Positions 7,500 to 53,345 of a DNA stretch of 64,000 bases are shown here, piece after piece (position 1 is the stretch's first letter; every line of letters starts with the position of its first letter). The DNA is from Anadara kagoshimensis (taxonomy: Eukaryota; Mollusca; Bivalvia; Arcoida; Arcidae): NCBI GenBank assembly GCA_021292105.1, contig CM037870.1, positions 65,432,515-65,496,514 on the forward strand, read 5' to 3'. Made by a program: the position numbers and the translations under genes. The notes beneath the pieces were generated by a model. That model was not told the origin of the DNA, did no database searches, and saw only the letters and a program-made list of their open reading frames with translations.

Positions 7500-7957
7500 A
7501 GAGAAGACCCTTCGGCTTGTTAGAAATTTCTCTGCATGCCCCATGAAATCTACGATGAAATTCTTGAGAGAGTCAGAGGGAGAATCAGGAGGCAGTATAA
7601 CTGGTACAGGGAGCCGCTGGAAGAAGGTTTCCAGTTGGCAGCTACTCTCCGTCATCTTGTGTCTGACACCAATTACTCCGACATGCAGTATGGATTGAGG
7701 GTGTCTGAAAACACTTCATCTGTAGTGATCAAGAAAGTGTGTCAGGCCCTATTCGACGAGTATGCAGATGAAGTCACGACAGCCCCTTCAACCCCTGATG
7801 GATGGAGATAAATTGCTGATGGATTCTATACGCGGTGGAATTTTCCTCACTGTTTGGAAGCTATTGATGGCAAGCATGTGGTCATCAGAAAGCCTCCTCT
7901 GTCTGGCTCGCTATACTACAAGTGCGTTTTCAGTATCATCCTGTTGGCTATCCTGTT
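7500..7957 (+). pseudogene. PIF/Harbinger (HARBI1-like) transposase fragment, broken
   Basis: The main frame starts at ATG 7536 and encodes an EPLEEGFQLAATLRHL / VCQALFDEYADEV region typical of the N-terminal half of Harbinger transposases. It reaches TAA at 7809-7811. The same frame continues after the stop with DGFYTRWNFPHCLEAIDGKH and SGSLYYK, the first catalytic-Asp region (the D of AIDGKH) of the DDE nuclease. About five expected residues after LYYK are missing, and the frame then enters the 31-bp minisatellite. The rest of the catalytic domain is absent. This is a dead transposon relic; family assignment is by motif recall. Confidence 0.85.
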
Positions 7958-21600: not shown

Positions 21601-24600
21601 TGGTTACAGGCCCGTAACAGCAAATTAAAAAGGGTGATCAAAATTAAAATACACAACAATTATGAAACAATAGAAAGTATAGAACACATGAACAGTTTAT
21701 GTAGAACCTTCAACAAATTAAATCAAATGGTTATCATCTGATGTTTGACTGGAGATGTTCATCTAGTCAGTCACTTTTATTTTGAATGCCGAGTTGAGTT
21801 GTAATGGGACTTTTCAATATTTGTACGTTATATTTAATATATAATATAGAACCATAATTTAGGTTTTCTTGTCATTTTCAACTTGAAACATTCAGTGCTC
21901 TCAATATTATAAATCTCACGAACATTTCATCACACTTTGCGACATCTCACTTTTTCATCCCCATGGACACAGTTTTATAAAAATTCTATATTTGTAATTA
22001 TTTAAATACATATCATGAACATATTAAGCTCATAATAAATGAAACATATTTCTCTCGTTGCATATAAACACGAAACTGTTAAAGGAAGATTATAAATGCA
22101 ATATAAACGAACATTTCAAAATCAGCACTTTATGAAAGTACAAAACCATAACTAATAGGAGCTAGCGGTTTTCTGAGAGTGCATTATAAGTCCCCATAGT
22201 GACGTATCTAGAGAAAGGTCAAACATGCCAAAGTATTGTGTTAATATAAAAAATATGCGGTGACATCGTTTGCACCTCTTTATTGAGTTTAAGTGCATGT
22301 TTCTTACATGTCTTAAAAACTGAATGAAATTTTTTGCGAAACAAGTGGTGAGATTAGTCTCTCATCTGCCCCCCCCCCTTTTTTTTTTCTACTGCTCTTG
22401 GTTAAAATTCTAACAGAGTAGGTATTTTGGAAATAATATTTTATAGATCAAAATACTTCCTTCCGTGTGTAATAAATGAAATACAAATGTATTTGTATCT
22501 AGGTAATAATAATTATATACTTAATATACTTGTATAAAGCAAAACATGGGGCTTACAAATGTGGATTTCAAAGACTTCTTTTTCAGGTTATTTTTGTAAA
22601 ATATGAAACAAAAGGATCTTAAAATAATGGTCTTTATGGGAAGTTGGCCTTTATATAGAAATGGTCTCAGTCGCTTTTACTCTATTTCAACGGACAATAA
22701 GAAATATATATGGACTCACTGGATGGATCTTTTTCTTTTTTGTATAACTTTGTATCTGTGTGTAAGTTCTGGCGACAAACCAGTAAAACTCGTACTCCGA
22801 TGGGTAGTATGTAAGTGCCAGATCTTTATGGTCTGTGAAACCTGTGTCAATTTCAAACGCAATCAGGTGAGACGTGTTTCTATAAATTTGCTGTAAAGAA
22901 AAAATATAAAAAGATAACATATATATGTATTGTTTAAACAATTACATGCATATTGACATGAAATTTTTTATAATGTACGCTATGAATAAGATTTACCAAT
23001 TCGTTAAAATGAATGTGAAGTATTCTTGACTGGAACGTGACATAAAACCTCATACATTCAACCAATCAATTTTATTTCATTCCAACTTCATTAATAAAAA
23101 AGGAAAAACATATAAATGTTTACCTGTATTTCTGGATCGTCTAGAACGGATTCCTTAAGAAGACCGGATAATATACCATTAGTTATACCATATATGGTAT
23201 TGGCGGCAACTGTACAGTCTACATTGTTAATGTTGAGTGGCATAGCCACGCCTTTATAGAAAGCTGTCCGCACTTCTTGAAGATCCTGAGCCTTTCAAAT
23301 AAAACAAAAATGCATTCTAGGTATAGAATGGAAATGCTTTTAAAAGTGGTATATACAAAAGCACTTGCAGCATTTGTGCCAAACCATTGATATTTTCCAG
23401 AAAAATGAAAATCATCAATCAGAAATTTAAAGTATTAACACCTTGTCGAATGGCTACATCTGATTCCACATGATACGCACCCGATAACGTTTGTGTGAAA
23501 CGATGTTGAATGGTGTTCGCCGCTGTAACACGATCAACCCCATTATCTTTGTGTGGGACGTTTTAGAAAATATTTACGTTCCTGGAATACCATTGTTTTA
23601 CGTAAAAACGTAAAGTGATACGTGTAAATTTGGGGATTTTTGGCTTCTTTTTTATTTTCACGTAAATTCGGGATAATAACAAGACATAACATCCGACAAA
23701 GATTAATAGTTAAAGATTTCGTTTATGGATCTCTTTTAAGAAAAGGATAATAAGAAAATGAAAATGGTGTTAAGTGCTCTTAAGAAACCTACCCATGTAG
23801 ATACTAGTGCTATGTCCTCGTTGTTCATAGATGCATTCATAAGAAACTTCCTAACATGAAAATAAGTCCTTGGATCAATGGTGTTTACCCGACTATCATT
23901 AGACATAGGTCGGTAAGCATACTTCTTTACTGCATCGAGTACTGAGGTTAAATTTGAGTTTGTTTTTGCCCATTGTGCATATGCCTCGGGAAACTTGTCT
24001 GACATTTCCTTCAAAATGCTCCCCAAACCAATATTCACGAAACTGTCGTCAAAATCTGGTGGTATCCTAAACACTGTGAGATAACCTTCTCTGAAAAGAT
24101 AATGTATGGGAGTAAGTAATTACATCAACATAATTATTACTCGTACGTGAAATTCTGATGCAGAATCACATTCGTTTAATTTTCGCGTAAATTCGTGAGA
24201 GCAACAAAACACGAAAAACAATTCTTTATTTGATTATTCGTGATTTTTCAATTACGATATAAATTAAAACGTATTTGCACTGATTGTCATCTGATCTCAA
24301 AAATATAAATGCGAGAATACCTGAAATGTCACTACTACCCAAAAACAACTGACGCGAATATTTCCCAACAGTTATTTACAGCAATCATACCTTGTACCCA
24401 ATATAAATTTGATTATATCCTCTAGTTCTGTCTGACCAAAAGCCTCCAAGATCTTTTCAATAAGGTTCCAATTTTTTCCAAAAGTAGATTCCAGAACTGC
24501 AACAAGATTCTGTGGTGTACTTTGCCAGGCATACGCTGTTCTGTTATACACCTGAGGCCAGAAATTCATGACAGAATTGACATAGTTACGATTCCTGTCC

Positions 24601-25697
24601 GTGTACATACTTATTGCTTCTAATGCTAACTGCATTTGTTTGCTGGATGGTCTCGGTGCTTTTCCATACCTAATAAATTAAATGTCAACCACAGATAAAT
24701 AAATGCTGATTAAAAACTCACCCATTTTATCTTAGAAATAAAATAATATTATTATAAGAACGAAGGCAACATTTGATATTAATTAATTATTTAATATTTT
24801 GATTGAAATAAGGTAAGGAAGTGAGGCCTAATCCTTCAGAAGGGTAGATTCTCCTGTCTAGCTGACTATACCCGCAGTGTGCATTAAAGTAAGCCAACAA
24901 ACAAAAGATTTCTTATATCAAAACATTAGCAAGTCTTAAAATTCAAATTGAAACAGGGAGAGATTATCAGCTAAAGATCGATTTGTCACATATATATATC
25001 GCTAATCTACAAATAGTGACTTCGAATAAAAGCTAAAAAAATAAATAAACGGGCAGGTTCATTTAATTAGGACACCCTCCCCGTAGGTACTGTTTGTTGT
25101 TAACAAAACTCCATAACCCATACGAAAATAAGCTAACCAACTAGGTAACAGTGATATGCACATTTCCTACAATTATGATGTTTTGCATCAATTTTCGTAA
25201 AATAGTGCCTCATAGTTTTGAACCCGGACAAGTGGCTGGATGTACGGACGAAAAGACGGAAGTTCTACTTTCATACCGGCACTTTTTCGAAAGGCGGGAG
25301 ACAAAAAGCAATAGCAGAAAATGCTGCGGAAAAAACACTGCAAATCTCGTTCTTCATACAGTAGCTTTATTATTAAATTTATACTTTACTTGTGAGCTTC
25401 TAATAAGCCTATAGTTATCCAACATGTCGCAAACATATTATTGTCAAAAACTGACATCGAGTCCCGCAACATATGCATTTTAGAATCTCCATGGAAATAC
25501 ATTTTGACGTCACTCTCGTACATCCCTTTGTCTTTGTAATATGAAAAAGGTGGGTTGGCTGTTGTTGTACTTCTCTGAACCTGCATGAGTCTTATTTGGT
25601 CTGATAAATCCTGGATGGTTTCGTCTACATCACCAGTGGCGGGTTGTAAACCCAAGCACGTTATCACAAGGAAGAAAGACGTCTTTTGAAGCCACAT
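17132..25697 (-). CDS. Secreted DxDD-motif protein, predicted alpha/alpha-toroid (terpene-cyclase-like), paralogue A
   Basis: Nine exons on the minus strand: 25390-25697, 24391-24669, 23793-24090, 23124-23291, 22720-22890, 19897-20049, 19035-19140, 18170-18291, 17132-17425. They sum to 1899 bp (632 residues), all with GT-AG borders in phase. The N-terminus (MWLQKTSFFLVITCLGL) looks like a signal peptide. Exon 3 has PPDFDDSFVNIGLG, matching the DxDD acid motif of squalene-hopene/class II terpene cyclases. Later come NNVDCTVAAN, YYPSEYEFYWFVARTY and EDRIFTTAMAINTL, which look like helices of an alpha/alpha barrel. Several N-X-S/T sites suggest glycosylation. I do not recognise a named family; the toroid fold is inference, enzymatic activity unproven. 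The neighbour at 27707-35318 is a tandem paralogue. Intron 5 holds an hAT fragment. Confidence 0.85.
17790..18070. repeat. Dispersed repeat family 'gtgaggctgg...gaagggtaag'
   Basis: Contains 'gtgaggctggttgttccgga', 'agggtaagtac' and 'gaacatgggactatgtaac', shared with 50430-50640 and in part with 57510-57690, 24812-24890 and 4085-4240. It lies in the last intron of paralogue A. Confidence 0.5.
18584..18616. repeat. Poly-A tract (33 A)
   Basis: A homopolymer in an intron of paralogue A, followed by 'ccgcccccaac'. It may be a retroposon tail, but no body was identified with confidence. Confidence 0.8.
18838..18960. mobile_element. Very decayed copy of the 'CCTGTCGAAAG' inverted-repeat element
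   Basis: 'acagggttgtcgaaaacgaa' followed by 'gttggccgatggccgagaag' and 'agggccaagatga' resembles the interior of the element at 15548-15775. No right terminus is seen. Confidence 0.3.
19480..19660 (-). repeat. SINE-like body shared with 43030-43380
   Basis: 'gggtttatatcccaatcagg', 'gctatgagtgaagtagcaga' and 'tttgcagtgtgcccag' match, with substitutions, the repeat in the FTSJ1 gene intron at 43030-43380. That copy has a tRNA-like head on the minus strand. Confidence 0.5.
20150..20345 (-). repeat. tRNA-Ser/Leu-like SINE
   Basis: On the minus strand the head reads GCCTCGGTGACCGAGTGG followed by TTTTAACCTAAGCGCC, a box A typical of long-variable-arm tRNAs. The body runs to 'tttgactggggcg'. It lies in intron 5 of paralogue A beside the hAT fragment. 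Confidence 0.55.
20380..21330 (+). mobile_element. Internally deleted hAT transposon with 8-bp flanking repeat
   Basis: Both ends carry the 8-bp direct repeat GTAAACCA (20380-20387 and 21323-21330). The tips CAGTGGCGTACCG and, inverted, CAGCGGCGTACCG are hAT-like; the CA overlaps the repeat. Inside, the frame 20567-20776 encodes TATAERSFSALKHLKTYLRS and then RLSSLALMHIH, the C-terminal hATC dimerisation segment seen in ZMYM1-type hAT transposases. The DDE part is missing, so it cannot encode an active transposase. It is inserted in intron 5 of paralogue A on the opposite strand. Confidence 0.85.
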
Positions 25698-25780
25698 TTT
25701 GTTTTCCCCTTTCTCTCTATCGAATTATTGATATTCTTCTTGTAAGTAAAAATAGTGATGATTAACTTGAATGTGACATG

Positions 25781-27706: not shown

Positions 27707-30700
27707 CTAGCCTATTACAGCATTATTATATTTTGATAAAGCCAACATAGATATAACATTTGTATATGGCTCAGAACTCCAAAATGGAAAGAACGACTTT
27801 TCATTATTGTAACCGTGGAACTCGGTAGGCGCAATACTTCCAAAATGAGGCTTCTTTAATTCCGATTCATACCACTGTTCGGATTCTATGCCCTGTACAC
27901 CGATAATGGTTGGGGCACGAGGTAAATGTGTCGTCTGGTTAACTTTGGTTCCATTGAAGAATTCAAATCTGTTTACTGGATACACAAAAGGAAGAGTTCC
28001 CTAAAATATTAAAGTCAAACATTGGGTGAAAACATTGAATACATTACCGACTTGTCGAAAGTTTAACACTAATCTAACGAATAAGTACCGAATTGATCAG
28101 CAGCTCGTCTTGAGCTCCTTGTCAGCTTCTCGGCCACCAATCATCCATGTCTCTGCCACTTGACAGTCGATCTTCAACTATTTTTTGTTTCCTCAGTGTT
28201 AAAGTTCCGACAAGTCTGTGCTGGACCATAAAGAACTTCAATTTAATTTTTATCATGTCTCTTTTATATTTACAGAAGGATTTTACTAACGGTGTTTATC
28301 ACCATTAAAAATTCTTTCACTTACATTCGGACTGGCATTGTAATGCTGTCATGTGCTACTTTTGAATTTTTATGAAATAATATAATTCAAAAGTAGCACA
28401 TGACAATTCATGTGCTACTTTTGAATTATATTATTTCATAAAAATTCAAAACTTTTGTTTTTACATTTCTATTGAAATAATATAATTCAAAAGTAGCACA
28501 TGACAATGCTGTAAAGAGCATCCCCGTAAAGAACTCCCAGGGCAGCTACATTCGTTCATCATTGCAACCGATCGTGTAACTCCAAACAAAGAGCTCGTTA
28601 GGATGTCCCTTTTATACGCAAAAAAACTCCGGTAACCAATGACGAAACAAGGAGCGTAAATTATTATCTCACCTTTATAAGCCAAAAGGCTCAGATGGTT
28701 GACCGTCTGTCATGCATCGTATGACGGTCGGTACGTTTTAGTAAATAATTTCCTATAAAGTTTCTGGGACAAAATTGTTTTGTATTAATTAAGGAGATAG
28801 TTAACTCGTGGCTACTAGTTGCTAAGTCTTCTAAAGCTGCTTATTTAAAACGCTTCTGGAAAGGTTAAATGAAAGTATACTTACAATCCCACCTTTTACA
28901 GAACCAGAAAAGAAGCTATTCCATGGCTTGTATCTTCCACTCGCAGAATATTTATCCAGCCAATTAGCACCTTGGCGAACGGTTTCAAATACCTTTAGGG
29001 GCGTGTCTAGAACAAATAATAAAAACATTACAATGACTTGTTCGTAGCTTTACAGACTGAAATGCTCAATTGTTGGTGGGTGAAACGATCAAATCCTTGT
29101 TGTGTGTATAATATAGACCTGTCGAAACTTTAATACTAAGCTAACGAGTTAGTGTCGAATCAGCGGCTCGTCGCGATCGCTCGTTCGTTATGTTGCGAAA
29201 GGTTGTAGTCGGCAGCTGCTACCCATCTCTTTTCAGGTTTTCGGCCACTTACCATCCATATCTCGGTCACTTTTCGTTAGCTCAGTGTTAAACTTTCGAC
29301 AAAACTGTATTGTATGCAATGCAAGTTTTTATTATTCTCATGTGGGAAGTTACTTTTTGATAAACAATTCATGACTTTGTATTTTCGTTACTTATTATTC
29401 ATAGAATTTGAAAAATAAGATATGTCACTTCCTTTTTTCAGACGACCTCGGAAGTGAGGTCAGTCATAAGCAACCAAAACAGAAAAGTCACTGCTTATTC
29501 ATCCGGTTTCTTGTACAAAATATCAAAGCTCGTGTTAAAATATCACTGTATTACAATAATTAATTTTTCTCTCACCATGTTCCCATACCAGTTTCTTTCT
29601 GCCGTCATCGCGAACTGTCCACGTTGTAAGTAAAGTATTAACAGCCATGGCGGTAGTAAAAATCCTGTCTTCACCTCTCTCCTGTAATAACATATAAACA
29701 TGAAATGATGGATAGGTCAAATGGTGTTTTCCACCCAAGTCAAAATTATTTTATTTATAGAGTCGAACAGTTCTTGGATGGTAGCGGAAAGCCAAGTGCC
29801 TAGAGAAACACCACCGACATTTGGCAAGCGAAATGACAAAATTCTCATACTAGTATCTATCGAGAGGGATTTGAGCATAGGCAGTAAAAGGTGCTGTGAT
29901 TAGTAAACGCGCTCTTTAGACCACTAAAATTTTGAACATCACTCTAAGCTTATTAACAAAAAAACATTATCATAACATCTTGTCATATTTAAGTTAAGGA
30001 AAGTCTTAAGGAATGATTGTGAAATTGGGAGACTTATCAAACAGTGTAACAACAATTTATTATCCACATGTTGCACTTACTTTCAGTTTATTGTAAAACC
30101 TGCAATTCATTAAGACTACGTGTCCATAAGAAGTCTGTCTAGGTCCATATGCCTTATATTTCAACCAAACTAACCTCTGTATAAAGGTTACGCCCACCTC
30201 CATATAAAGTCAATGTTTCTTAGATCACATGGCTGATCTTTATATAAATATACAGGGTTTCCCTGATGACAATTTACCTGTGTATTGTTTTGGCTGTCAA
30301 TGTCTGCATCTCCCAGGAAATCATCGTAATAGATCCTGTCATCTACCTCAACCTTGTAGGAATCCGTCAGTAGCTGGGTAACTCTTCCCTTCAGTACAGA
30401 TCCAAACATAGCTCTAACATCTTGCAATATCTATAACAACCATTCGATAAAATAAATACACATGTGTTTATCCATACACAGCATAAACCATCAATTGCCA
30501 TGACGCGACATTTTCTACTCGCTATAATAATAAATAAAGTGATGCAGTGATCCACAGTAAATGGTTGATTTATATCATTGGATGTTTCCATATTACCATT
30601 TTAAACTGCAAAACGGATACGTGACAACAGCCAACACAACCAAGAACTACTCCACCACTCGACTTCAAACATTGGCGAACGCGAACTAGAATAAGTCGAT

Positions 30701-33700
30701 GGCAAAACAGATAAACAAGACATTACAAAAAGACAAACACATACGAGGACTACCCAATATACCATTGCTGACATTAGACGCGCACTAGAGCAATCAAAGT
30801 AAATGTGTAGTTACAGTACTATTGGAAGGTACTCATCCATCACACTATCTACAGCAGATTATCCATTAATTAATGATCATGCTACATCAAACAACCACCA
30901 GAATTTGATAGTTGTCAAATTGTCAGCACTTACTTCTATTTGCATTGAATGAAGAAACGTCCAAAGGAACTGAAGTAAATAACACTTCCCGCTTTGATTA
31001 AAGGGCGCTATTTCAGTATATAGAATACTGACTATACTTTCTGTGTATGCATGCAAAATCCTACTTCCATTTTAAAAATCTTATTCGGAGGCGTATCGTT
31101 CTAGCCCAAAATAATGAAACTTTTCACATTCTAAAATCATTAAGCGTTAGAAAAATGTGAAAGATTTGTTAGTTCGCTTGCCGAAGGTTGGTGGCTTTCT
31201 CCGGGTACTCCGGTTTTTCTTTACCATCACAGAACTAATTACCTTGATCTGTGAAATAATCATTACTTGGGTTTAAAACACCATTACTCCACCCCTCGCT
31301 TTATTGAAATTTTGACAAATTAATTTCTCACCGGATGTATCTTTGTCGTCTGCGCATAGTGTTGTATCTGTGTGTATGTCCTTGCCACAAACCAGTAAAA
31401 TTCGTACTCTGACGGATAGTAAGTTAGAGCCAAGTCTTTTCGTCCGGTGAAATTCGTCAATATTTCAAAAGCAATTAAACTAGACGTATATTCTTATATT
31501 TGCTACAACATATCAATAAAACACGTCAATTTCTGAAAATTTGTAATCTCAAAACAAAAGAAGTTTGTCAAAGGAAAATATTGTTATATAATTATGCAAT
31601 TAATATTCCCTGGACGGAAAGACCTCCCAATTGGACCATCCACTAAAATTCCACATTCGACTGAAAAAGCATAAAAATAACGGAATCTAGTCATTTTGAA
31701 TATTTTTGTGAAAAATAATTTTTCAAAGCTTTTACATAGAATTAATTGTTAGGGTACTGGGAAAAGGAAGTTTTGTCCCTTGGCGTATTTATTTACCAAA
31801 GATATATGAAGGTTCTGATAGTTGCTTTATTGGTCATCTGAATTGGTCAGCTAACGGTAACTAAAAAGATCAGAAAAACGGTCCAAAAGGATATCGACCA
31901 AACCTTTTATCTCCACACTGATTGGAGATGTTCATCTTGTCCATCTTTAATGTGACATAATGCGTCCTTCTTTTATTATATTAATGATTTTACTAATAAT
32001 AATACTATTTTATTTTATTATAATAAAAGTATGCTGACTGACTAACTCACCACGGACTCCGGCATTGATTAGCTGACGACTCGCTCACTCAATTATAAAG
32101 TAATCACTCATTCATCCAATTATCACGCACTCACTACACTCACCTGTATTTCCGGATCGTCTAAGATATCTTCCTTCATAAGCCCAGACAAAATAGCAAC
32201 ACAACACTAGCAGCTACTCACTTATTGAATCACCACTAACTCACTACTTTGCTAACTCACCTGTATTTCCGAATCGTCTAAGATATCTTCCTTCATAAGC
32301 CCAGACAAAATAGCATTTGTTAGACCATATACAACATTAGCGGCAACTGTACAGTCCACATTGTTAATGTTAAAAGGCATATCTATTCCTTTGTAATACA
32401 ACGTTCTTACTTCATCTGTGTCCTGGACCTGATACAAAAGTATACATGTATACAGGACATACTATTCGTTATTTGAGGAACGTATCAAATCAAATACAAA
32501 CACAAAGGTCCATGTCTAAATCACAATCCTAACAGTAAACTAAAAACTGGCAAATCAAGTTAAAATTTAAACCACAGAAATTAGGTCAGATACTCTGAAT
32601 GTACACTGTAAAACAATGTTAATCGGAAAATTTTCCTGTCAGTTAATTTTCGCGAATATTGCATAGAGTTATTTTAGAGTCATCGAATGATGATTGGTTT
32701 AATTACAAGTAATAAAATTTTTATCAAAATAAAACAAACAGGATTTTCTTTCAATTTACTGAAACCAAAACAGAAGTGTTAAATTACTGACTTTGATCGG
32801 GCAGTGGAGTACACGTCCAGAGGTATGGTTTTAATACTGCTACTGCTAAGGGACCTCAACCCTTCCACTTATTTAACAGCCACGCCAGTTTTAATTCCGA
32901 ACGGGAAATCAGTGGAGTAATCGTTCAGTATTGTGGTCTTAATTTAGTACTATTAGAGGACCCTCATCAACCCCACTTGTTTTTCAACATTAGATAAAAG
33001 AGTCACCAATTTCGATTCAGATTGTAAAATTCCTGTCCTGTCATCTTAGGCTTGATAATAAAATTTTACCCAAGTTGGAACCAGAGCAATGTCTTCCCCG
33101 TTAGATGCCGAGTCTTCTAAGAATCTTCTTATATAGAAGTACGTCCTTGGATCAATGGTATTAACCCTCTGGTCTTTTGACGTAGGACGGTATGCATATC
33201 TCTTTAAAGCGTCCAATATTGAGGATATATTAGTGTTTTCTTTCTGCCACAAGGCATATGATTCTGGGAACTCGTCTGACATTTCTTTCAGTATGGTACC
33301 AAGTCCTAAGTTTACAAAAGTGTCATCGAAATCAGCCGGTATCACAAAGGCTGAACGAAACATTTCCCTGAAGTACAGATAAACGGTTTATTAGCATTTT
33401 GATGAAATAAGTAAAATTTTATCATATATTTTAATATGTGAAACACAATTCTACATTTTCATTCTACACAAGGGTTTTGTAAAACATTGTATACGTAGCT
33501 CACATGACATAATAACCTCTAAAAGGACTATAATATGTTCAATTATGTTTTACGTCGCATCAGTTAGTTTCAGCAAAATTGATATGACACAATTAATTTC
33601 CATTGATTAGGCTAAACACAATGTCATGTGTTGCTTTAGTTTTGTCATGGTATTTATGATCTAATCCTGTATCAGTGGGTATCTTTACAGTGATAGTAAA

Positions 33701-35318
33701 CCTTTTTCTGCAATGTCTATCTGTGACATTATAGACGAAATGGGATAGACACTCGGCTTAATACACTGATACCGAACCAACAAAGAAACATCTAATGCAA
33801 GGGAAAACACTTCGAACGCACGCAGTTGTAGGACGCCATGTGATTGATCGGGATAGATAGGACAGTGTTTACCAAAAAACTATTAACTTTATTCATTGAA
33901 TTTAAAAAAAAGACAAACCTTTCACTGATAAGATTTTTCGTGATATTGGCTAGTTCTCCTTGTCCTATGTTCTGAAGTAATTTATATACTTTATCCCAGT
34001 TGACGCCATATGTCAAATCAAACAAGTCCAGCAAGTTTCGTGGTGTACTTTGCCATGAGTATAACGTCCTATTGTAGACCTGTGGCCAGAATGTCATAAT
34101 AGAGTTAGCATAGTTCCTATTCTTGTCGTGGTACAAATTGATGGCTTCCACTGCTGACTTAATTTGTGATTCTGATGGCTTTGGTGCTTTACCAAATCTG
34201 GAAAGTTTAAAATATTTTGCCAATCAAATCACATGAATTAATTTATTTTCATATCTGGACGATTGGTTGGTTTAAATTGTATTGTGATATATGATAACAT
34301 TTGTAAACCTTCAAAGACATTTCTCACAGAGATTGGTTATCTTGTGAGAATATAATGTTTCCCATTCGAGGTGATACAACAAATATCCGTAAAAAGTTAT
34401 AAACATGATAATATTAATTTGGCGTTTTCACTCTGCAAATGACAGCCATCATGATAAAAGTACATGCATATAAAAAATAAAACGTTCTATTGTTTTAATA
34501 AATTATCTTGCGAATAATTTATGCTTCCGCAAATGTTTCTCCAAGATATTTGCAAAAAATATGTAAATGTAGGTTTTCGCTGTCAAAATCTTTGATTAAA
34601 TCATTGATAATCTTAAACCTTGATCAAAGCGTCTTTGATCCTATTCAAATTTTCCGCCAAAGCTTACAGAAATGAAACTCTTAGAAATACTTATAATTTT
34701 ACATTACAATTGATAGAAATTAAAATGACAAATCTTAAATCATCCAAATTCTTGGAAAATGGTCTTTATGATTAGCACTGCCTGCTTAATCTATTTAATA
34801 CCAGACTGAGTATGTTTCCCGAAAGCACTTGAAGGATGGACCTGTAGTCTTATCTGAATTTTGATCGGTTTAATCCTATCGATTGCATCAATATTGTAAG
34901 GAAAATAATTATGATGAAATACTATTTACTAACTATAGACCATCCCTAATAAAAACACAAATTACAAAAATATGCATAATAGGCCATCACGGTGACTTTG
35001 ATAAAAGATTTTATAAAATTAAAATCACCTGTATGCTTCCAACAGCCCTATAGTAATCCATGCAGTAGCAAACATATTGTTGTCAAAAATACCAAACTCC
35101 CTCCTCAAGTTGTACATTTCATAATCGCCATGGAAATATAACTTAACATCACTTTCATACAATCCTTTGTCTTTGTGCCAGAACAATGGTGGGCGTGACT
35201 CTGTTGTCTTTTTTACTTGGGCTTGTTGTATCCTTAGCGACAGATTTCCGATGGTGGCACCGAAATCTGCCGCCACATATGGGAAAAACAAAGAAACGAA
35301 AACTACAACCAGAACCAT
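27707..35318 (-). CDS. Secreted DxDD-motif protein, paralogue B, with internal stop in exon 5
   Basis: Tandem duplicate of the gene at 17132-25697. Nine exons: 35029-35318, 33919-34197, 33070-33367, 32261-32428, 31332-31502, 30278-30430, 29576-29681, 28885-29006, 27707-28000. Exons 2-9 have exactly the lengths of paralogue A; exon 1 is 18 bp shorter. The product would be 626 residues, with a signal-like start (MVLVVVFVSLFFPYVAA), PADFDDTFVNLGLG in exon 3 and NNVDCTVAAN in exon 4, where 40 of 56 residues match A by my count. Codon 3 of exon 5 is TAA (31494-31496), where A has TAT. All splice sites and the downstream frame are intact. Skipping exon 5 (171 bp) would keep the frame but remove the YYPSEYEF helix. 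It may be a recent pseudogene, a null allele or a local sequence error. Function unknown. Confidence 0.82.
28040..28224. mobile_element. Inverted-repeat element copy in paralogue B intron 8
   Basis: Left 'ccgacttgtcgaaagtttaa', right 'gttaaagttccgacaagtct'. The interior has 'ctaacgaataagtaccgaat' and 'ggccaccaatcatccatgtc', matching the 25781-26000 copy. Confidence 0.8.
28349..28511. repeat. Nested inverted repeats around 'catgtgctacttttgaatt'
   Basis: 28349-28369 pairs with 28384-28404. The longer block 28360-28401 is repeated inverted at 28410-28451 and again partly direct at 28473-28511. It is AT-rich, non-coding and located in intron 8 of paralogue B. Confidence 0.8.
29109..29314. mobile_element. 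Inverted-repeat element copy in paralogue B intron 7
   Basis: Left 'atagacctgtcgaaacttta', right 'gttaaactttcgacaaaact'. The interior has 'gctaacgagttagtgtcgaa' and 'cggccacttaccatccatat'. The TA at both tips is kept. Confidence 0.8.
31150..31310 (+). repeat. SINE body copy in paralogue B intron 5
   Basis: 'ttcgcttgccgaaggttggt', 'tccgggtactccggttt' and 'aaaacaccattactcca' match the SINE body seen at 27240-27430 and 59580-59720. No clear tRNA head is seen. Confidence 0.55.
32141..32198 (-). pseudogene. Duplicated 3' end of paralogue B exon 4 including its donor site
   Basis: 58 bp identical, apart from one base, to 32258-32315, the last coding bases of exon 4 plus the splice donor, displaced by 117 bp into the following intron. 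It lacks an acceptor and the rest of the exon. Reading through from exon 4 meets TAG almost at once (gtgagttag), so it is not a usable coding extension. Confidence 0.85.
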
Positions 35319-35873: not shown

Positions 35874-38800
35874 TAAAACAGTAAGATAGGTAAAGTTAGC
35901 TACTAGTAACTGGCTACTAGTAGCTGGCTACTTGTAGAAGAAAAGTTAGCTACTAGTAGCCAGTTACTTGTGGAAGAAAAGTTAGCTACTAGTAGCCAGT
36001 TACTTGTTAGAAAAGTAGTTGATTATTTTGAAAAAAAATATCAACTATTTACTTCGCATAACTACCTACTAACGAATTAGATTTTATGGATCAAAACTTC
36101 CGCAAAACTACGAACAATTTCTTGTACCACGAATGTAGTACCGATATTTTTTAATGTAAATAACATTCCAGACGAGTAGCTGGGTATTTATATTTAAGAT
36201 ATTCAAAATTCAAGCATATCATGATGAAGTATATTCAATTCTGCATCCATTGATACCAAATATTCAAACATTCAAGCTTCAATACGCTCAAATACGCTTC
36301 CACAAAGGAGAGGGGGGAGTGTACGGGTAGGTTCTAATGCAATTTACATGGTTTTTCACATTCAGGACGAGTAGCTGGGTATTTATTTTTAAGATATTCA
36401 AAATTCAAGCATATCATGATGAAGTATATTCAATTCTGCATCCATTGATACCAAATAATCAAACATTTAAGCTTCAATACGCACAGATACGCTTCCACAA
36501 ACGGGACGAGGGGATGCAAAAACGGGTAGGTTCAAGTGTAATTTTCATGATTTTTCACATTCAGGACGAGTAGCTGGGTATTTATATTTAAGATATTCAA
36601 AATTCAAGCATATCATGATGAAGTATATTCAATTCTGCATCCATTGATACCAAATATTCAATCATTCAAGCTTCAATACGCTCAAATACGCTTCCACAAA
36701 GGAGAGGGGGGAGTGTACGGGTAGGTTCTAATGCAATTTACATGGTTTTTCACATTCAGGACGAGTAGCTGGGTATTTATTTTTAAGATATTCAAAATTC
36801 AAGCATATCATGATGAAGTATATTCAATTCTGCATCCATTGATACCAAATAATCAAACATTTAAGCTTCAATACGCACAGATACGCTTCCACAAACGGGA
36901 CGAGGGGATGCAAAAACGGGTAGGTTCAAGTGTAATTTTCATGATTTTTCACATTCAGGACGAGTAGCTGGGTATTTATATTTAAGATATTCAAAATTCA
37001 AGCATATCATGATGAAGTATATTCAATTCTGCATCCATTGATACCAAATATTCAAACATTCAAGCTTCAATACGCTCAAATACGCTTCCACAAAGGAGAG
37101 GGGGGAGTGTACGGGTAGGTTCTAATGCAATTTACATGGTTTTTCACATTCAGGACGAGTAGCTGGGTATTTATTTTTAAGATATTTAAAATTCAAGCAT
37201 ATCATGATGAAGTATATTCAATTCTGCATCCATTGATACCAAATAATCAAACATTTAAGCTTCAATACGCACAGATACGCTTCCACAAACGGGACGAGGG
37301 GATGCAAAAACGGGTAGGTTCAAGTGTAATTTTCATGATTTTCACATTCAGGACGAGTAGCTGGGTATTTATATTTAAGATATTCAAAATTCAAGCATAT
37401 CATGATGAAGTATATTCAATTCTGCATCCATTGATACCAAATATTCAAACATTCAAGCTTCAATACGCTCAAATACGCTTCCACAAAGGAGAGGGGGGAG
37501 TGTACGGGTAGGTTCTAATGCAATTTACATGGTTTTTCACATTCAGGACGAGTAGCTGGGTATTTATTTTTAAGATATTCAAAATTCAAGCATATCATGA
37601 TGAAGTATATTCAATTCTGCATCCATTGATACCAAATAATCAAACATTTAAGCTTCAATACGCACAGATACGCTTCCACAAACGGGACGAGGGGATGCAA
37701 AAACGGGTAGGTTCAAGTGTAATTTTCATGATTTTTCACATTCAGGACGAGTAGCTGGGTATTTATATTTAAGATATTCAAAATTCAAGCATATCATGAT
37801 GAAGTATATTCAATTCTGCATCCATTGATACCAAATATTCAAACATTCAAGCTTCAATACGCTCAAATACGCTTCCACAAAGGAGAGGGGGGAGTGTACG
37901 GGTAGGTTCTAATGCAATTTACATGGTTTTTCACATTCAGGACGAGTAGCTGGGTATTTATTTTTAAGATATTTAAAATTCAAGCATATCATGATGAAGT
38001 ATATTCAATTCTGCATCCATTGATACCAAATAATCAAACATTTAAGCTTCAATACGCACAGATACGCTTCCACAAACGGGACGAGGGGATGCAAAAACGG
38101 GTAGGTTCAAGTGTAATTTTCATGATTTTTCACATTCAGGACGAGTAGCTGGGTATTTATATTTAAGATATTCAAAATTCAAGCATATCATGATGAAGTA
38201 TATTCAATTCTACATCCATTGATACCAAATATTCAAACATTCAAGCTTCAATACTCTCAAATACGCTTCCACAAAGGAGAGGGGGGAGTGTACGGGTAGG
38301 TTCTAATGCAATTTACATGGTTTTTCACATTCAGGACGAGTAGCTGGGTATTTATTTTTAAGATATTTAAAATTCAAGCATATCATGATGAAGTATATTC
38401 AATTCTGCATCCATTGATACCAAATAATCAAACATTTAAGCTTCAATACGCACAGATACGCTTCCACAAACGGGACGAGGGGATGCAAAAACGGGTAGGT
38501 TCAAGTGTAATTTTCATGATTTTTCACATTCAGGACGAGTAGCTGGGTATTTATATTTAAGATATTCAAAATTCAAGCATATCATGATGAAGTATATTCA
38601 ATTCTGCATCCATTGATACCAAATATTCAAACATTCAAGCTTCAATACGCTCAAATATGCTTCCACAAAGGAGAGGTGGGGAGTTTACGGGTAGGTTCTA
38701 ATGCAATTTACATGGTTTTTCACATTCAGGACGAGTAGCTAGGTATTTATTTTTAAGATATTTAAAATTCAAGCATATCATGATGAAGTATATTCAATTC

Positions 38801-40796
38801 TGCATCCATTGATACCAAATAATCAAACATTTAAGCTTCAATACGCACAGATACGCTTCCACAAACGGGACGAGGGGATGCAAAAACGGGTAGGTTCAAG
38901 TGTAATTTTCATGATTTTTCGCATTCAGGACGAGTAGCTGGGTATTTATATTTAAGATATTCAAAATTCAAGCATATCATGATGAAGTATATTCAGCGTA
39001 TCTGTGCGTATTGAAGCTTAAATGTTTGATTATTTGGTATCAATGGATGCAGAATTGAATATACTTCATCATGATATGCTTGAATTTTAAATAACTTAAA
39101 AAATAAATACCCAGCTACTCGTCCTGAATGTGAAAAACCATGTAAATTGCATTAGAACCTACCCGTACACTCCCCCCTCTCCTTTGTGGAAGCGTATTTG
39201 AGCGTATTGAAGCTTGAATGTTTGAATATTTGGTATCAATGGATGCAGAATTGAATATACTTCATCATGATATGCTTGAATTTTGAATATCTTAAATATA
39301 AATACCCAGCTACTCGTCCTGAATGTGAAAAATCATGGAAATTACACTTGAACCTACCCGTTTTTGCATCCCCCCGTCCCGTTTGTGGAAGCGTATTTGA
39401 GCATATTGAAGCTTGAATGTTTGAATATTTGGTATCAATGGATGCAGAATTGAATATACTTCATCATGATATGCTTGAATTTTGAATATCTTAAATATAA
39501 ATACCCAGCTACTCGTCCTGAATGTGAAAAACCATGTAAATTGCATTAGAACCTACCCGTACACTCCCCCCTCCTTTGTGGAAGCGTATTTGAGCGTATT
39601 GAAGCTTGAATGTTTGAATATTTGGTATCAATGGATGCAGAATTGAATATACTTCATCATGATATGCTTGAATTTTGAATATCTTAAATATAAATACCCA
39701 GCTACTCGTCCTGAATGTGAAAAATCATGGAAATTACACTTGAACCTACCCGTTTTTTGCATCCCCCCGTCCCGTTTGTGGAAGCGTATTTGAGCGTATT
39801 GAAGCTTGAATGTTTGAATATTTGGTATAAATGGATGCAGAATTGAATATACTTCATCATGATATGCTTGAATTTTGAATATCTTAAATATAAATACCCA
39901 GCTACTCGTCCTGAATGTGAAAAATCATGGAAATTACACTTGAACCTACCCGTTTTTGCATCCCCCCGTCCCGTTTGTGGAAGCGTATTTGAGCATATTG
40001 AAGCTTGAATGTTTGAATATTTGGTATCAATGGATGCAGAATTGAATATACTTCATCATGATATGCTTGAATTTTGAATATCTTAAATATAAATACCCAG
40101 CTACTCGTCCTGAATGTGAAAAACCATGTAAATTGCATTAGAACCTACCCGTACACTCCCCCCTCCTTTGTGGAAGCGTATTTGAGCGTATTGAAGCTTG
40201 AATGTTTGAATATTTGGTATCAATGGATGCAGAATTGAATATACTTCATCATGATATGCTTGAATTTTGAATATCTTAAATATAAATACCCAGCTACTCG
40301 TCCTGAATGTGAAAAATCATGGAAATTACACTTGAACCTACCCGTTTTTGCATCCCCCCGTCCCGTTTGTGGAAGCGTATTTGAGCGTATTGAAGCTTGA
40401 ATGTTTGAATATTTGGTATAAATGGATGCAGAATTGAATATACTTCATCATGATATGCTTGAATTTTGAATATCTTAAATATAAATACCCAGCTACTCGT
40501 CTGGAATGTTATTTACATTAAAAAATATCGGGAGTACATTCGTGGTACAAGAAATTGTTCGTAGTTTTGCGGAAGTTTTGATCCATAAAATTTAATTCGT
40601 TAGTAGGTTGCTATGTGTAGTAAATAGATGATATTTTTTCAAAGTAATCAACTGCTTTTCTAACAAGTAACTGGCTACTAGTAGCTAACTTTTCTTCCAC
40701 AAGTAACTAGCTACTAGTAGCTAACTTTTCTTCTACAAGTAGCCAGCTACTAGTAGCCAGTTACTAGTAGCTAACTTTACCTATCTAAAACAGTAA
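35874..40796. mobile_element. Giant foldback transposon built of opposed satellite arrays
   Basis: The element 35885-40785 (4901 bp) is flanked by the exact 11-bp repeat TAAAACAGTAA (35874-35884 and 40786-40796). Its termini begin GATAGGTAAAGTTAGCTACT and are inverted copies over about 300 bp. They contain about three ~37-bp sub-repeats (agttagctactagtagcc...). Inside, about 14 direct monomers of ~197 bp (36180-38997; alternating two types, so a 394-bp dimer period) meet about 7.6 inverted monomers (38998-40500) without a spacer. No transposase is present. Long sub-repeated termini with a 9-11 bp target duplication resemble Foldback/Mutator-type elements; that placement is inference. The 78-codon open frames inside are satellite by-products. 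Confidence 0.9.
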
Positions 40797-48000: not shown

Positions 48001-51000
48001 TGTGCTAGTACTATGCAGACATACATCAATGTAGCCTAGTGTAATCTTGCTGACACTAACAGAACGGGGCAAATAATAAATAGCACCCATACAAACATAT
48101 GATTTACTTAGGTGTCTAATATACATATTAGTATGAAGTGACATGGTGCGAATGACAGAGATCTAGGTACAAATGCTTGCATGGTCACACCAGAGATCTT
48201 GATTATTAACTTGGATGACAATGATCATAGTCCAAATGCCTGCATGGTGAGACCAGAGACCATGATTGCTTACTCTGCATATATAAACAAATTCATTTAA
48301 GTTTAAACACATGTTCTGTGTCATTGTATAATTAATACAATATAGACTGCACATTGGCAATAAGCACGATTTACATAATACAGTAAAACCTGCTATAGCA
48401 TCCATCATCTCTATTTAAAAACAATCTACATGTACTAGTATCTATTTGGGCCATTGTTTTGATATCTCTGCTTAATAATCTAACCAAAAATCACGACAAC
48501 AGAGGTCACCTGTCTATAAAGTCTGTATTTTAATATGAAGACCACAAGGGACCTGAACAATACAATAAAACCTGTACATAAAGATGACCCATGGACCTTT
48601 TATAATTTAAATGGAAAGGTCCATGGGTCGTCTTTATATACAGGTTTTATTGTATTGTTTAGGTCCCATTTGTGTCTTCATATACAGTTTTCTGTGTGTC
48701 TTAGGTCCCATGAGTTGTATTTATATGCAGGTTTAATTGTATTTGAACAGTATTCTAATGTTAAAAGTGCTGTAATATTGTTAATGCTTGTCAATAAATA
48801 AGGTAATCTAAAAACATTTTTAAATTTTGTAGAAGCATTTGTTGTCTGCCAGAATTATTCTCCACCTCCAGGGTATATCCCAAATATGTCTAACCCACTA
48901 TTAGACCATCATTATGGTGAGTGTTTATTGTTTATAATACATAATTTATAATGTATAGGTTTTGATGTATGTCACAATATAATATAAACTGATACACTGC
49001 TTACCTTACTTGTCTAATAAAAACTTCTTAAAACAATTGGTTTCAAACACAGGCGGCACAGGCCAAGATGTTCTCAGACATACAGCTTGGATTTTGAAGT
49101 ACAAAAATGTGTCTGCTAAAACTTGATTCTTGTCCATTTTATGTTGTCATTGCTTTAGATGTGTATCAATGCCAAACTGAACACTATAGACTTGGGCGAA
49201 TCTTAGTATGACAAAGTTTATCATTTCATTTGTTGAAGGTTAGTAGTTTGCTTTGGGTACTCCAGTTTCCTGCACCATCTCTGAACGGCTTGTCTTCTTT
49301 TCAGTGATATTCTCTAGACTGAGGTGTAAAACGCCATTACTACACTTAACTCATATGTTCTATAAGCTCCTAAATGTTAAAACCCATTTTTAATGTATCT
49401 TTTATGATAATAATGATTTTTTTTACAGATGTAGATTTTAATAACTTAGAGGGCCCTAATAGAATCATAGTGCCATTTCTGGCTTGTGGAGATCTCAGTG
49501 GCTTTGATTCTGACAGAACATATCCACTTCAAGTAAGTTTAGAACAGAATCATTGTACCATTCATAGACTTTGGTGATCTTATTTGGTTTAACTGTAGGG
49601 TGTACCTTTATCATGATTGGGGACCTGGCTATATTCTTGCTAGATAAAGAGGTAATGTTTCAAGTACTTTGCCCATGGACATTGGTACTCCATCAGACAC
49701 AACACCCCTTCTCATTTGAGGGTGCAGTGTAATAATGTAAAGTATATGTTTTTTCTACACATTAGATCATGTAGGTAATATAAGGTAATCAGGCCATGGG
49801 ATGGTGTACCGAGATATGACATTTTCTCCACTACATTATCATTGAGTTGGTTTTAGTTTTTGTTTAACTGAAAAAGTGCAAGAAACAGCAATATTATGGT
49901 TATTTACATGGAATTTGTGCAAACTTTTTGGTTAAAGTTAACTTTATTTCTTTGGATTCAGCAACGAATAGTTATTGTAATAAGTCATCATGCCCCAGTT
50001 TCACAATCATTCCTTAGCTAAGATTTTTTTAACTTAAATTTAGCAATTTTTTGTAATCTCTTTTTTGGAACTACTGGTTAATATTTTTGTCAAAACTAAA
50101 TGCAAATGTTTTAATCTAGAAGTGATCAATGACACCTAAAATGTCTTTAAAATAAACAAAATTATAAAACATTGAAACTTTGCAAGATTTAAGTTAAGGA
50201 AAATCTTAGCTAAGGAATGATTGTGAAACTGGGGCCAGGATCTAATTACTATCAAAACGGGATAACTCCAATTAGCATAATTATACTTTATTGGAATACA
50301 TGTACTTGGGTCATGAAAGGATAATTGAACTTATGAGAGAAAAGTGTATGGAAATGTAATGGCCTTTAAGCTTGGTAGGCTGTATTACATGTAATAGAAA
50401 TGTCATACATACAAATGACATCAAAAACAAACAAACTGGTCCATGTCAAAATCCTAACCCAGAAAGTGAAGCAAAAACTTTGTAGCTATAGTGAGGCTGG
50501 GTGGTCCAGAAGTAGCTGTTTAACTGAGAATGAAAGGAACATGGAACTATGGGGCAACAATATATACCCAGGGTAATTTTGAATTTGGAAACAGAGACAT
50601 CAAAACTTAGACATCTTTATCCAAAATAGTCTGATGTAGGCTATAATACTTCTGGTATGCAAGCCTTTCTGATATTTTAATGTATCAAAACTGTACTATA
50701 CAAATTATCAAATAAGTACTGAATCTTGACTTCTTGTTAGCTTAATCTTGACAGTTGCTATATATCTCTTGGCAGCTTTTCAGTGAGTGGCTATCCATAT
50801 AAAGGCCAGTAGGTAGCCTTATTTTGACTCCTGTACGCAAACCCAGTTGTTAACTGTGGGCATATCTGTACTATATATATATATAATTATTAATTATATG
50901 TATGTTTTTAACCATGTTTCAGTTGAAGACTGGAGAGGAGTATGTCTATCATCCACCAACTCAAGGTCCTATTAATCCACCCTACCAGACAGCTTGTGAA

Positions 51001-51234: not shown

Positions 51235-52625
51235 ACTACATTATTTTTGTTTCAATGCAGTGACAGATTTAGTGGGGTATATGTTTATTCTTTACGTTGC
51301 TGAAAATACATTTTTACATTAATTTATGATGTTTTTTCTCCATTTAATGCAGCTGATTGCACCAGACCGCAGTATTTTGTGCCTTTTTTTTTTTTAATTT
51401 TCCGGGATTGCATGCCCCTATAACAAACTAGAAAGTTTAAGATTTCAGATCTCATCTCATTGAATATTATTACTTCATAATATCACAAGAAGTGATTTAA
51501 ATTAGTACTTTATGTCTATAGCAAATGTTTTAATTCCATTTTCAAATTACTATCCTTTTTAATAGATAAGAAAGCTATGAACAACTGCGTCCTGAACTAT
51601 AGTAAATCTGGTCTTTACAAAAAGACATGGCTGTGGAAATTTAACAAATGCTCTGAAAAATGTTTGGTTAGCTGCCAGTTTTATTGGAGATGTTCATCTA
51701 ATCAGTCACAATTAGATATTTTATGTGTATAATAGTTGATATTACCACATGGATTGGCTTTATTTAGATGAACCTATTAATTTTTGTTGGCACTCAATTG
51801 TTTATCCGTTATGAATACAGTGTGGGTCATGACCTCTAATTATGCAATATTTTGTCAGTCAGGTGTTTCTGCTAAAATAAAACTGTGCTAACATTACCTA
51901 TTCTGTTTTCGGAGTTCATGCAAAAAGTCTGTGCCTAAAATAAAACTGCATTAATTACTTATGTTTAGAAAACTGGCTAAAATAAGTCTGCACTAATATA
52001 AAGTGGTTTACCGTATAAGAAATATATTATGATAGGAATGAAATGAATTTTTCATTTTGCTATGAAAGTATGAAAAATTTGGACAAATTGCACAGGTAAC
52101 ATAATTCACATTTAATTTCTTATAATTCAATTTTAGGAAATTTTCCAACAACAAATCAACAATTTAAACAACAATATAGCCATAGCAAGTAGCATTGTTA
52201 TGGCATAGGAACTCAAATCTCTGTGTCATCCATAATAAGATTATGTCACTGAGAGCCAATCCATGCATGCAAACCTAACAGAAAATTTAAAGATCTGACG
52301 AATCAAAATGCTCGAAACAAAAAGGAATTGAATTATTTGAATGAATTCTATGAATGAGTCAGAAATAGTAAATTGTATGAACATTGTAAGTAATTAAATT
52401 GCTAGGATAAAATAACAATTCCTGGACAAAATAACAATCTACATATTAGGCAGAGTAATTACCGGTAATCTGCCTTGCCAGAATAAAATTTGCCAGGGCT
52501 GAATTGCAATCCAAAGGGCAAAAAAATTGATTAATTAATTAATATATTAATTGTTTGCCTGTGTATATTATTATCTTTTCTGGGCAGATAAAATATATTC
52601 CTCCTTTTATGTCTTAAATACTATA

Positions 52626-52765
52626 CAATTATGGACTTTTTAGTGGTTGTATATGGTGTGATATTCACCGGAAAAATAAATATTGATCGAGGCGACAGCC
52701 GAGGTCAATATTTATTTTTCCGGTGAATATCACACCATATACAACCACTAAAAAGTCCATAACTG
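52626..52765. repeat. Perfect 56-bp inverted repeat around 'gaggcgacagccgag'
   Basis: 52631-52686 and 52705-52760 are exact reverse complements separated by an 18-base loop; pairing continues with one mismatch for about five more bases outward. The segment 'gatattcaccggaaaa' reappears alone near 53107. It is probably a foldback MITE. Confidence 0.9.
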
Positions 52766-53345
52766 TTTTATTATATAATTTAGCCACTGTGGCACTTCGG
52801 TTGACAATGTTTTCTCAAACCTTGACCAGGCAATCTAACTATTTTACCGATGTTAGATTTCCCTGTCCACCCTGGTTGATCACACTAAAATTATTCCGCA
52901 TTAGTTAGCCCAATCTGACTTTTTAAGAAAAATAAATGACATTCCAGATGAGACACAATTAAATACACACTACATTGTAAATTGATAATGCCATAACGTC
53001 AACGTTCTATGAAAAAAAAAACATAACAAGACACAATCACTTGCGTACACGTTTTAATCATTTTACGGAGAACGTCGACAAAAATCGATGACGTACACCG
53101 AATTTGATATTCACCGGAAAATCCGTGGTATATGATGTGAGATCCAATGGTCACGTGTTACCGTTTTAGCCAATCATAAAGATGGAATTTATTAATTATA
53201 TAATAAACTTCATTATATCATGGTAATATTGCAGAACAAATTGTCAGAAAAACTGGGGTAAAGAATGATAATTAGTAATTTGTTGGGTAACAATAAGAAT
53301 CGCTGACAAATTCACCAATCTGCTGGGTTAAGTAATGAGTAATAA

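What the first reader, a model, noticed from the sequence alone, without database searches (positions are those of the whole stretch)
35874..40796. Giant foldback element of opposed satellite arrays with an exact 11-bp target repeat
Termini of ~300 bp with internal sub-repeats, an 11-bp direct repeat on both flanks, and two opposed arrays of ~197-bp monomers (about 14 against 7.6) meeting without a spacer. As single-stranded DNA it could fold into a very long hairpin. It lacks any gene, so it must be mobilised in trans, probably by a Mutator/Foldback-like transposase. It sits 566 bp upstream of the paralogue B start codon.
Basis: partly seen in the sequence, partly recalled or inferred. Interest (0 to 1): 0.75.

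Follow-up and report, generated by a model that had tools for sequence, protein, structure and literature searches.

The report
Satellite-armed foldback transposon near gene
A stretch of DNA made of two opposed blocks of a repeated unit is one copy of a family of gene-less jumping elements, and it sits in a spot next to a gene that is still empty in a sister copy of that region; it is a large new member of a kind already known from insects and worms.

Summary
The element is 35884-40786 (4,903 bp): 279-bp terminal inverted repeats with sub-repeats, and 14.3 against 7.6 opposed ~197-bp monomers meeting without a spacer. The target duplication is 9 bp (AAAACAGTA), not 11. The exact 16-bp tip occurs 461 times in the 1.1-Gb genome (reversed control 1). 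Of 38 tip-to-tip copies read (92 bp to 17.1 kb), 31 have a perfect 8-10 bp duplication. A paralogous locus 350 kb away holds the empty site: one duplication copy, no element. Of 100 exact monomers listed (two contigs), 95 lie within 10 kb of a tip. The two arms of this copy carry different higher-order repeats, and copies at a shared site elsewhere differ in length (1.1 and 4.3 kb), so array change is separable from jumping. No transposase was recognised in any copy read. Duplication size and composite termini suggest a Mutator-type enzyme acting in trans; no autonomous partner was found. It is a non-autonomous foldback element like Tetris, Rehavkus or Tm1: a new member of a known kind, notable for its size range and for a satellite that seems to live inside a transposon.

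The parts
35875..35883 (+). left target-site duplication AAAACAGTA
   Evidence: single copy with one substitution at the empty paralogous site
35884..36162 (+). left terminal inverted repeat (279 bp), tip AGATAGGTAAAGTTAGC, with subterminal 14/36-bp sub-repeats
36163..38995 (+). left array, 14.3 monomers of ~197 bp as a two-monomer (394-bp) higher-order repeat; a-a 1.0%, b-b 0.5%, a-b 9.3% divergence
38976..39015 (.). centre junction of the two arms (at 38995), no spacer; a 25-base sequence across it occurs once in the genome (up to 2 mismatches)
38995..40509 (-). right array, 7.6 monomers; a-type identical to a left a, b-types 3.7% from left b; order differs from the left arm
40510..40786 (-). 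right terminal inverted repeat
40787..40795 (+). right target-site duplication AAAACAGTA

Best explanation
It is a non-autonomous foldback DNA transposon whose inverted arms are satellite arrays. SHOWN: copies with the same tips are flanked by 9-10 bp target duplications; the window insertion interrupts a site that is intact in a sister locus; copies range from a 92-bp palindrome to 17.1 kb (18.9 kb for one read only at its ends and centre); arm arrays are mostly unequal and the centre junction differs in most copies; copies at one shared, duplicated site differ in array length. INFERRED: a transposase encoded elsewhere, most likely of the Mutator (MULE) superfamily or its Rehavkus relative, binds the tips and moves the element by cut and paste; after insertion each arm grows or shrinks on its own by unequal exchange or replication slippage between monomers, and breaks or template switches at the hairpin centre make new junctions.
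For: 461 exact 16-bp tips, reversed control 1. 38 tip-to-tip copies: perfect duplications of 8 bp in 1, 9 bp in 23, 10 bp in 7; one mismatch in 2; none in 5, one of them flanked by N; chance about 0.0003 per site. Empty site with a single duplication copy in a paralogue. Two 92-bp copies 98.9% identical (in opposite orientation) with different duplications. A 1.6-kb and a 17.1-kb copy on different contigs with different duplications share a centre junction with the same filler, and an 18.9-kb copy shares the filler and one side of it. L066/L077: flanks 98-99% identical (1.2 kb left, 2.0 kb right), same junction, 1,131 against 4,290 bp. Different higher-order repeats in the two arms of the window copy. 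95 of 100 listed exact monomers lie within 10 kb of an exact tip, against 0.7% of those two contigs.
Against: No transposase was recognised in any copy read. None of 30 of the 76 MULE-domain loci has the tip within about 1.5 kb, and one MULE family with many equal-scoring matches has different end motifs. Of 38 TIRs whose mate in the same element was also measured, only 15 are nearest to that mate, so ends are exchanged between copies or arms evolve apart. A length difference at a shared site with long flanks checked rests on one pair, and there it is the subterminal repeat, not the 197-bp monomer, that differs most. 5 of 38 copies lack a recognisable duplication.
Confidence: 0.85

Rival explanations
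1. The mobilising enzyme is not a MULE but another transposase with 8-10 bp duplications, the foldback form having evolved by convergence as in Galileo.
For: No partner found. Galileo, a P-superfamily element, has similar long internally repetitive TIRs (PMC3573991 abstract).
Against: Duplications are 9 bp in 23 and 10 bp in 7 of 31 perfect cases, within the 8-11 bp stated for MULEs (PMC6446971 passages) and unlike the 7-8 bp that I recall for P and hAT elements. Composite subterminal repeats with 9-bp duplications resemble Tm1 (PMC3169594).
Confidence: 0.25
2. Array expansion happens before or during transposition (for example by aberrant gap repair in the long inverted repeats) and large elements jump at full size; change in place is minor.
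For: The 15.1- and 17.1-kb copies have both tips and duplications of 9 bp with one and no mismatch. Most centre junctions are unlike each other and that of the window is unique, as if each event made a new one.
Against: L066/L077 differ in length at one shared site. Arms of the window copy carry different higher-order repeats.
Confidence: 0.3
3. An ordinary satellite array with an inverted segment, not a transposon; the flanking repeat is coincidence.
For: Two opposed arrays alone can come from an inversion in a satellite.
Against: Tips with duplications at 31 of 38 copies; empty site; 95 of 100 listed monomers beside tips.
Confidence: 0.02
4. The inverted half is an assembly artefact.
For: Satellites are hard to assemble; no reads could be examined.
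Against: The same layout in copies on C1-C8 and C14, mostly with different junctions and with duplications matching across the whole element.
Confidence: 0.03

Closest known systems
Tetris (Drosophila virilis foldback; PMC4079207: abstract, section 10 and part 1 of section 16 read)
   Same: Non-autonomous foldback; flanking domain, then tandem ~220-bp repeats in the TIRs; 8-10 bp duplications; a MITE derivative (DAIBAM); an allelic pair differing by one repeat; satellite-like arrays up to 66 copies.
   Different: Tetris has a middle domain and three structurally complete copies, and its authors suggest that large arrays disrupted the element; here 30 of 38 copies are at least 90% TIR and monomer, and arms of about 70 and 75 monomer lengths sit between two tips.
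Rehavkus-1_TC and the Rehavkus group (passages of PMC10218199 and PMC6446971)
   Same: [quoted passage not shown] 9-bp duplications for the group.
   Different: Rehavkus elements described there have a transposase with a PHD finger; none was found here. Hosts given there are arthropods and annelids.
Tm1 (root-knot nematodes; PMC3169594: abstract and section 9 read)
   Same: Composite TIRs with 1-9 short repeats, unequal between the two ends; 9-bp duplications; MITE-like forms.
   Different: Tm1 repeat is most often 14 bp; a copy with a Phantom-type transposase is known.
Galileo (Drosophila; PMC3573991: abstract and section 7 read)
   Same: Long TIRs, in one subfamily with expandable ~210-bp tandem repeats; exchange between copies.
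   Different: P superfamily with known transposase; TIRs up to about 1.25 kb; two or three repeats.

Membership tests
Foldback elements (structural class) | Long inverted termini built of tandem repeats that make up most of the element | tested here: met
Foldback elements (structural class) | Insertion with a target-site duplication | tested here: met
   31 of 38 perfect 8-10 bp; empty site
Mutator (MULE) superfamily | 8-11 bp duplication and often long TIRs | tested here: met
   criterion from PMC6446971 passages
Mutator (MULE) superfamily | MULE transposase encoded by the element or by a partner with the same tips | tested here: inconclusive
   76 MULE-domain matches in the genome, a lower bound; surroundings of 32 looked at: 30 loci of about 3.2 kb, L078, L110; none has the family's TIR; 44 not looked at
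Rehavkus | Satellite or minisatellite in or beside the termini, 9-bp duplication | tested here: met
   criterion
Rehavkus | Transposase with PHD finger | not tested
   no coding copy found; a Rehavkus transposase was not searched for as such
Tetris | Sequence homology to Tetris TIR-FD or TIR-220 | not tested
   Tetris sequence not at hand
Galileo / P superfamily | 7-bp duplication (recalled) | tested here: not met
   9-10 bp in 30 of 31 perfect cases
Free-standing satellite DNA | Arrays independent of a mobile element | tested here: not met
   95 of 100 listed exact monomers within 10 kb of a tip; list covers C1 and part of C2 only, of 2,606 places

The most novel reading that the evidence does not exclude
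The 197-bp satellite exists only as the arms of this transposon, and the inverted architecture is itself the engine: each arm amplifies separately into its own higher-order repeat and the centre is rebuilt in nearly every copy, so one element family acts as a dispersed nursery in which satellite birth can be followed copy by copy, with centre junctions as lineage barcodes.
Probability: 0.4. Interest if true: 0.6.

Novelty: new member of a known kind. Interest (0 to 1): 0.43.

Why it matters
How satellites arise from and spread with transposons is an open question. Here many complete copies of one family run from a 92-bp palindrome through one or a few monomers to arms of more than 70 monomer lengths, and some centre junctions let copies be placed in lineages. 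That makes the order of events (jump, then change of each arm) testable within one genome. The window copy is also an insertion beside one of several paralogous genes, with an empty paralogous site for comparison.

Tried and rejected
Eleven-base duplication: rejected; other copies place the tips one base further out and the duplication is 9-10 bp.

Autonomous copy among long tip pairs: five copies of 7.3, 8.0, 8.0, 15.1 and 17.1 kb were read whole. Four are satellite throughout; L009 (8.0 kb) has a 5.0-kb non-satellite middle, and L011 (5.4 kb) a 1.4-kb one. Of frames of 75 aa or more touching these middles, 4 of 6 (L009) and 2 of 2 (L011) were scanned; no Pfam match reached its cut-off. Single 401-bp samples inside the 8.5-, 13.3- and 18.9-kb pairs are satellite. 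One pair 43 kb apart was not examined. Solo tips on C1 and C2: 18 read (17 over about 800 bp inward, plus L006); 9 of 18 show TIR pieces in both orientations; they were not searched for genes, except one with a gap between tip and array (L082 with L099, 6,996 bp; longest frame 104 aa, not run against Pfam). Three more (L001-L003) have TIR and monomers; the rest were not read.

MULE beside a copy at C5:19.395 Mb: 6.0 kb read (L078); no TIR, only an 18-bp match to a monomer (E 0.002) and one 12-base tip match with 2 mismatches; no frame of 90 aa or more. Taken as a chance neighbour.

Microhomology at centre junctions: 35 junctions (some from duplicated sites) against 600 simulated random joins, no excess (median -2 against 1; one-sided P 0.80, overlaps above -10 only).

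Shared motif: the 9-mer AGTAGCTGG is in the subterminal repeats and in the monomer, and that part of the monomer is among its best conserved. By my own rough estimate a shared 9-mer has about a 1 in 5 chance, so I do not build on it.

Two C14 hits to the filler junction with one mismatch have no TIR or monomer in the 4 kb around them and were dropped.

Sampling: 25 pairs were read by eye from the 100 places listed of 461, 20 fetched; 21 more pairs from the 100 listed of 220 places of a longer tip, 17 read whole, 3 sampled, 1 left. Contigs after C8 are unsampled except the window. Choosing exact tips at both ends favours young, intact copies, and makes opposed tips a condition of the sample, not a result.

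Full report
What is there. The window lies at G000:C14:65432515-65496514 of a 1.115-Gb genome in 36 contigs. The element runs from 35884 to 40786 (4,903 bp). Both ends carry a 279-bp inverted repeat with 14- and 36-bp sub-repeats. Inside, 14.3 monomers of about 197 bp face 7.6 monomers in the other direction; the arrays meet at 38995 without a spacer. Two frames inside the arrays have no Pfam match at a curated cut-off.

It is one of a family. The exact tip GATAGGTAAAGTTAGC occurs 226 + 235 times, the reversed control 0 + 1; a 35-base version 105 + 115 times, control 0 + 0. I read 38 tip-to-tip copies, the window included: 20 of 25 pairs noted in the first listing and 17 of 21 further pairs. 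Both lists were capped at 100 places, so only C1-C8 and the window are sampled. Lengths run from 92 to 17,134 bp, median about 1.1 kb. By 14-bp flanks the 38 copies stand at 35 distinct sites, three sites being held by two copies each. Perfect duplications: 8 bp in 1, 9 bp in 23, 10 bp in 7; one mismatch in 2; none in 5, of which one is flanked by N. Two random points of the window match perfectly over 8-10 bp with frequency 0.000295.

Empty site. The two flanks joined with one duplication copy, used as a query, hit C14:65820368-65820567 on the minus strand across the join. That locus, about 350 kb away, is a paralogue of the region upstream of gene B: 98.5% identical over 719 bp that ends some 150 bp left of the site; a stretch across the join is 88.8% identical (285 columns, 25 gaps), the next one 90.2% (285 columns, 20 gaps); between them lies the ATAA repeat of the window, largely missing in the sister. 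At the site it reads GGATAGTAAAATAGTAACCATT: one copy of the duplication with one substitution, and no TIR or monomer match in the locus. So the element most simply arrived by a staggered insertion in the lineage of the window copy after the two loci separated; precise excision from the other copy is possible but less likely.

Structure of copies. Opposed tips were the condition of the sample. All 29 copies of 508 bp or more also carry at least part of a monomer, the 9 shorter ones none. In 30 of 38, TIR and monomer cover at least 90% of the length; the exceptions are L009 and L011 with inserts and six copies under 1 kb. Arms run from near equal (3.3 and 3.9 monomers) to 70 against 3 and 11 against 75. 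L077 has instead about 40 units of the subterminal repeat in one arm. One 92-base copy, folded as single-stranded DNA, forms a hairpin at -39.6 kcal/mol against a mean of -10.8 for shuffles, z -13. A 19-mer of the monomer occurs 2,606 times exactly, and 277 of 365 read monomers carry it. Of the 100 listed places (C1 and part of C2), 95 lie within 10 kb of an exact tip, zones that cover 0.7% of those two contigs. The satellite thus seems to live in the element, as far as sampled.

How the arrays change. In the window copy the left arm is a two-monomer higher-order repeat (a-a 1.0%, b-b 0.5%, a-b 9.3%). The right arm has a-monomers identical to a left one, but b-monomers 3.7% from the left b and closer (1.6%) to those of another element, in a different order. 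I read this as separate growth of the arms. Over 365 monomers the nearest neighbour is in the same arm alone in 205, tied between the two arms in 47, in the other arm alone in 24, in another element alone in 66, other ties in 23; mean distances are 5.3% in one arm, 6.5% between arms, 8.8% between elements. In some elements (L073, L075) the other arm is as near or nearer, so exchange between arms also occurs. L066 and L077 share flanks (98.7-99.4% over 1.2 kb on the left, where the match then stops; 98.0% over 2.0 kb on the right) and the centre junction, yet measure 1,131 and 4,290 bp: one insertion, duplicated, that then changed length. Growth is the simpler reading, since other copies have few subterminal units. 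The other two shared-site pairs, known by 14-bp flanks only, also differ in length (929/965 and 194/263 bp). Whether L066/L077 are a segmental duplication or two haplotypes placed apart in the assembly I cannot tell; the inference is the same.

Lineages. A 25-base sequence across the window's centre junction occurs once in the genome. Comparing 35 junctions and the two 92-bp copies, clear matches are C7/C4 (below), L066/L077, L016/L017, L026/L027 and the two 92-bp copies; several others match in part at 78-100%. C4:11.795 Mb (1,620 bp) and C7:9.862 Mb (17,134 bp) share a junction with a filler of about 12 bp (one base shorter in one), in opposite orientation, with different duplications; C6:13.915 Mb (18.9 kb; ends, centre and one sample read only; duplication TTAATTAAA) shares the filler and one side. 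The filler looks by eye like inverted monomer sequence. Two 92-bp copies are 98.9% identical at different sites. So a given form can jump, and array size differs about ten-fold among likely descendants. TIRs of one element are on average closer (2.9%) than TIRs of different elements (6.7%), but of 38 TIRs with a measured mate only 15 are nearest to it. That speaks for exchange between copies, or for arms that evolve apart.

Who moves it. No transposase was recognised in any copy read; frames were listed for the long copies and Pfam was run on 6 frames of the two inserts. The genome has at least 76 MULE-domain matches. In 30 of them, about 1.5 kb on each side holds no tip with up to 3 mismatches and no TIR match except one of 26 bp, E 0.015. 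A FLYWCH-MULE family with 10 matches of equal score has other end motifs in the one copy read: repeats of CATTACCGCGACAT in opposite orientation on the two sides. MULE origin rests on the duplication length (8-11 bp in MULEs, passages of PMC6446971) and on likeness to Tm1, Tetris and Rehavkus. I put it at about 0.6-0.7.

Known relatives. Tetris (abstract, section 10 and part 1 of section 16 read) is the nearest in anatomy and already made the case that foldback arms seed satellites, with one allelic pair differing by one repeat. Rehavkus-1_TC has a 164-bp satellite of mostly five and eight monomers in its inverted termini (passages of PMC10218199). Tm1 and Galileo show unequal, expandable termini (abstracts and one section each). 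Of PMC13359780 I saw passages only; they add the view that Rehavkus belongs to the MULE superfamily. My literature searches listed no paper that I could recognise as being on this element; only titles and starts of abstracts of the top rows were seen, the species is unknown to me and Repbase could not be searched, so it may be recorded there.

Verdict. The kind is known; the size range, the many complete copies, and the chance to separate jumping from array change make it a good system rather than a new kind.

Noticed in passing
window 7956-12482: About 146 copies of a 31-bp tandem unit (4.5 kb), a second large array in the window.
   Followed up: no
window 22715-25724 and 31327-35318, minus strand: Two paralogous genes, about 74-79% identical over matching stretches, with no Pfam family for the four frames tried; a further paralogous locus lies near C14:65.82 Mb.
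   Followed up: partly
window 28347-28507, 48533-48683, 52625-52766: Short near-perfect palindromes that could be other hairpin MITEs.
   Followed up: no
L110:872-980 and 2707-2833 (C5:26.62 Mb): A FLYWCH-MULE gene with a 497-aa open frame, 10 equal-scoring matches in the genome, and several copies of CATTACCGCGACAT inverted on its two sides; may be a young MULE family with subterminal repeats.
   Followed up: partly
C6:4236687 and C6:5090035 (L066, L077): Inverted duplicates (or misplaced haplotypes) 0.85 Mb apart in which one copy of the element has about 40 subterminal repeats and the other few.
   Followed up: yes
window 13522-14886: A 454-aa open frame with an NHL repeat match.
   Followed up: no
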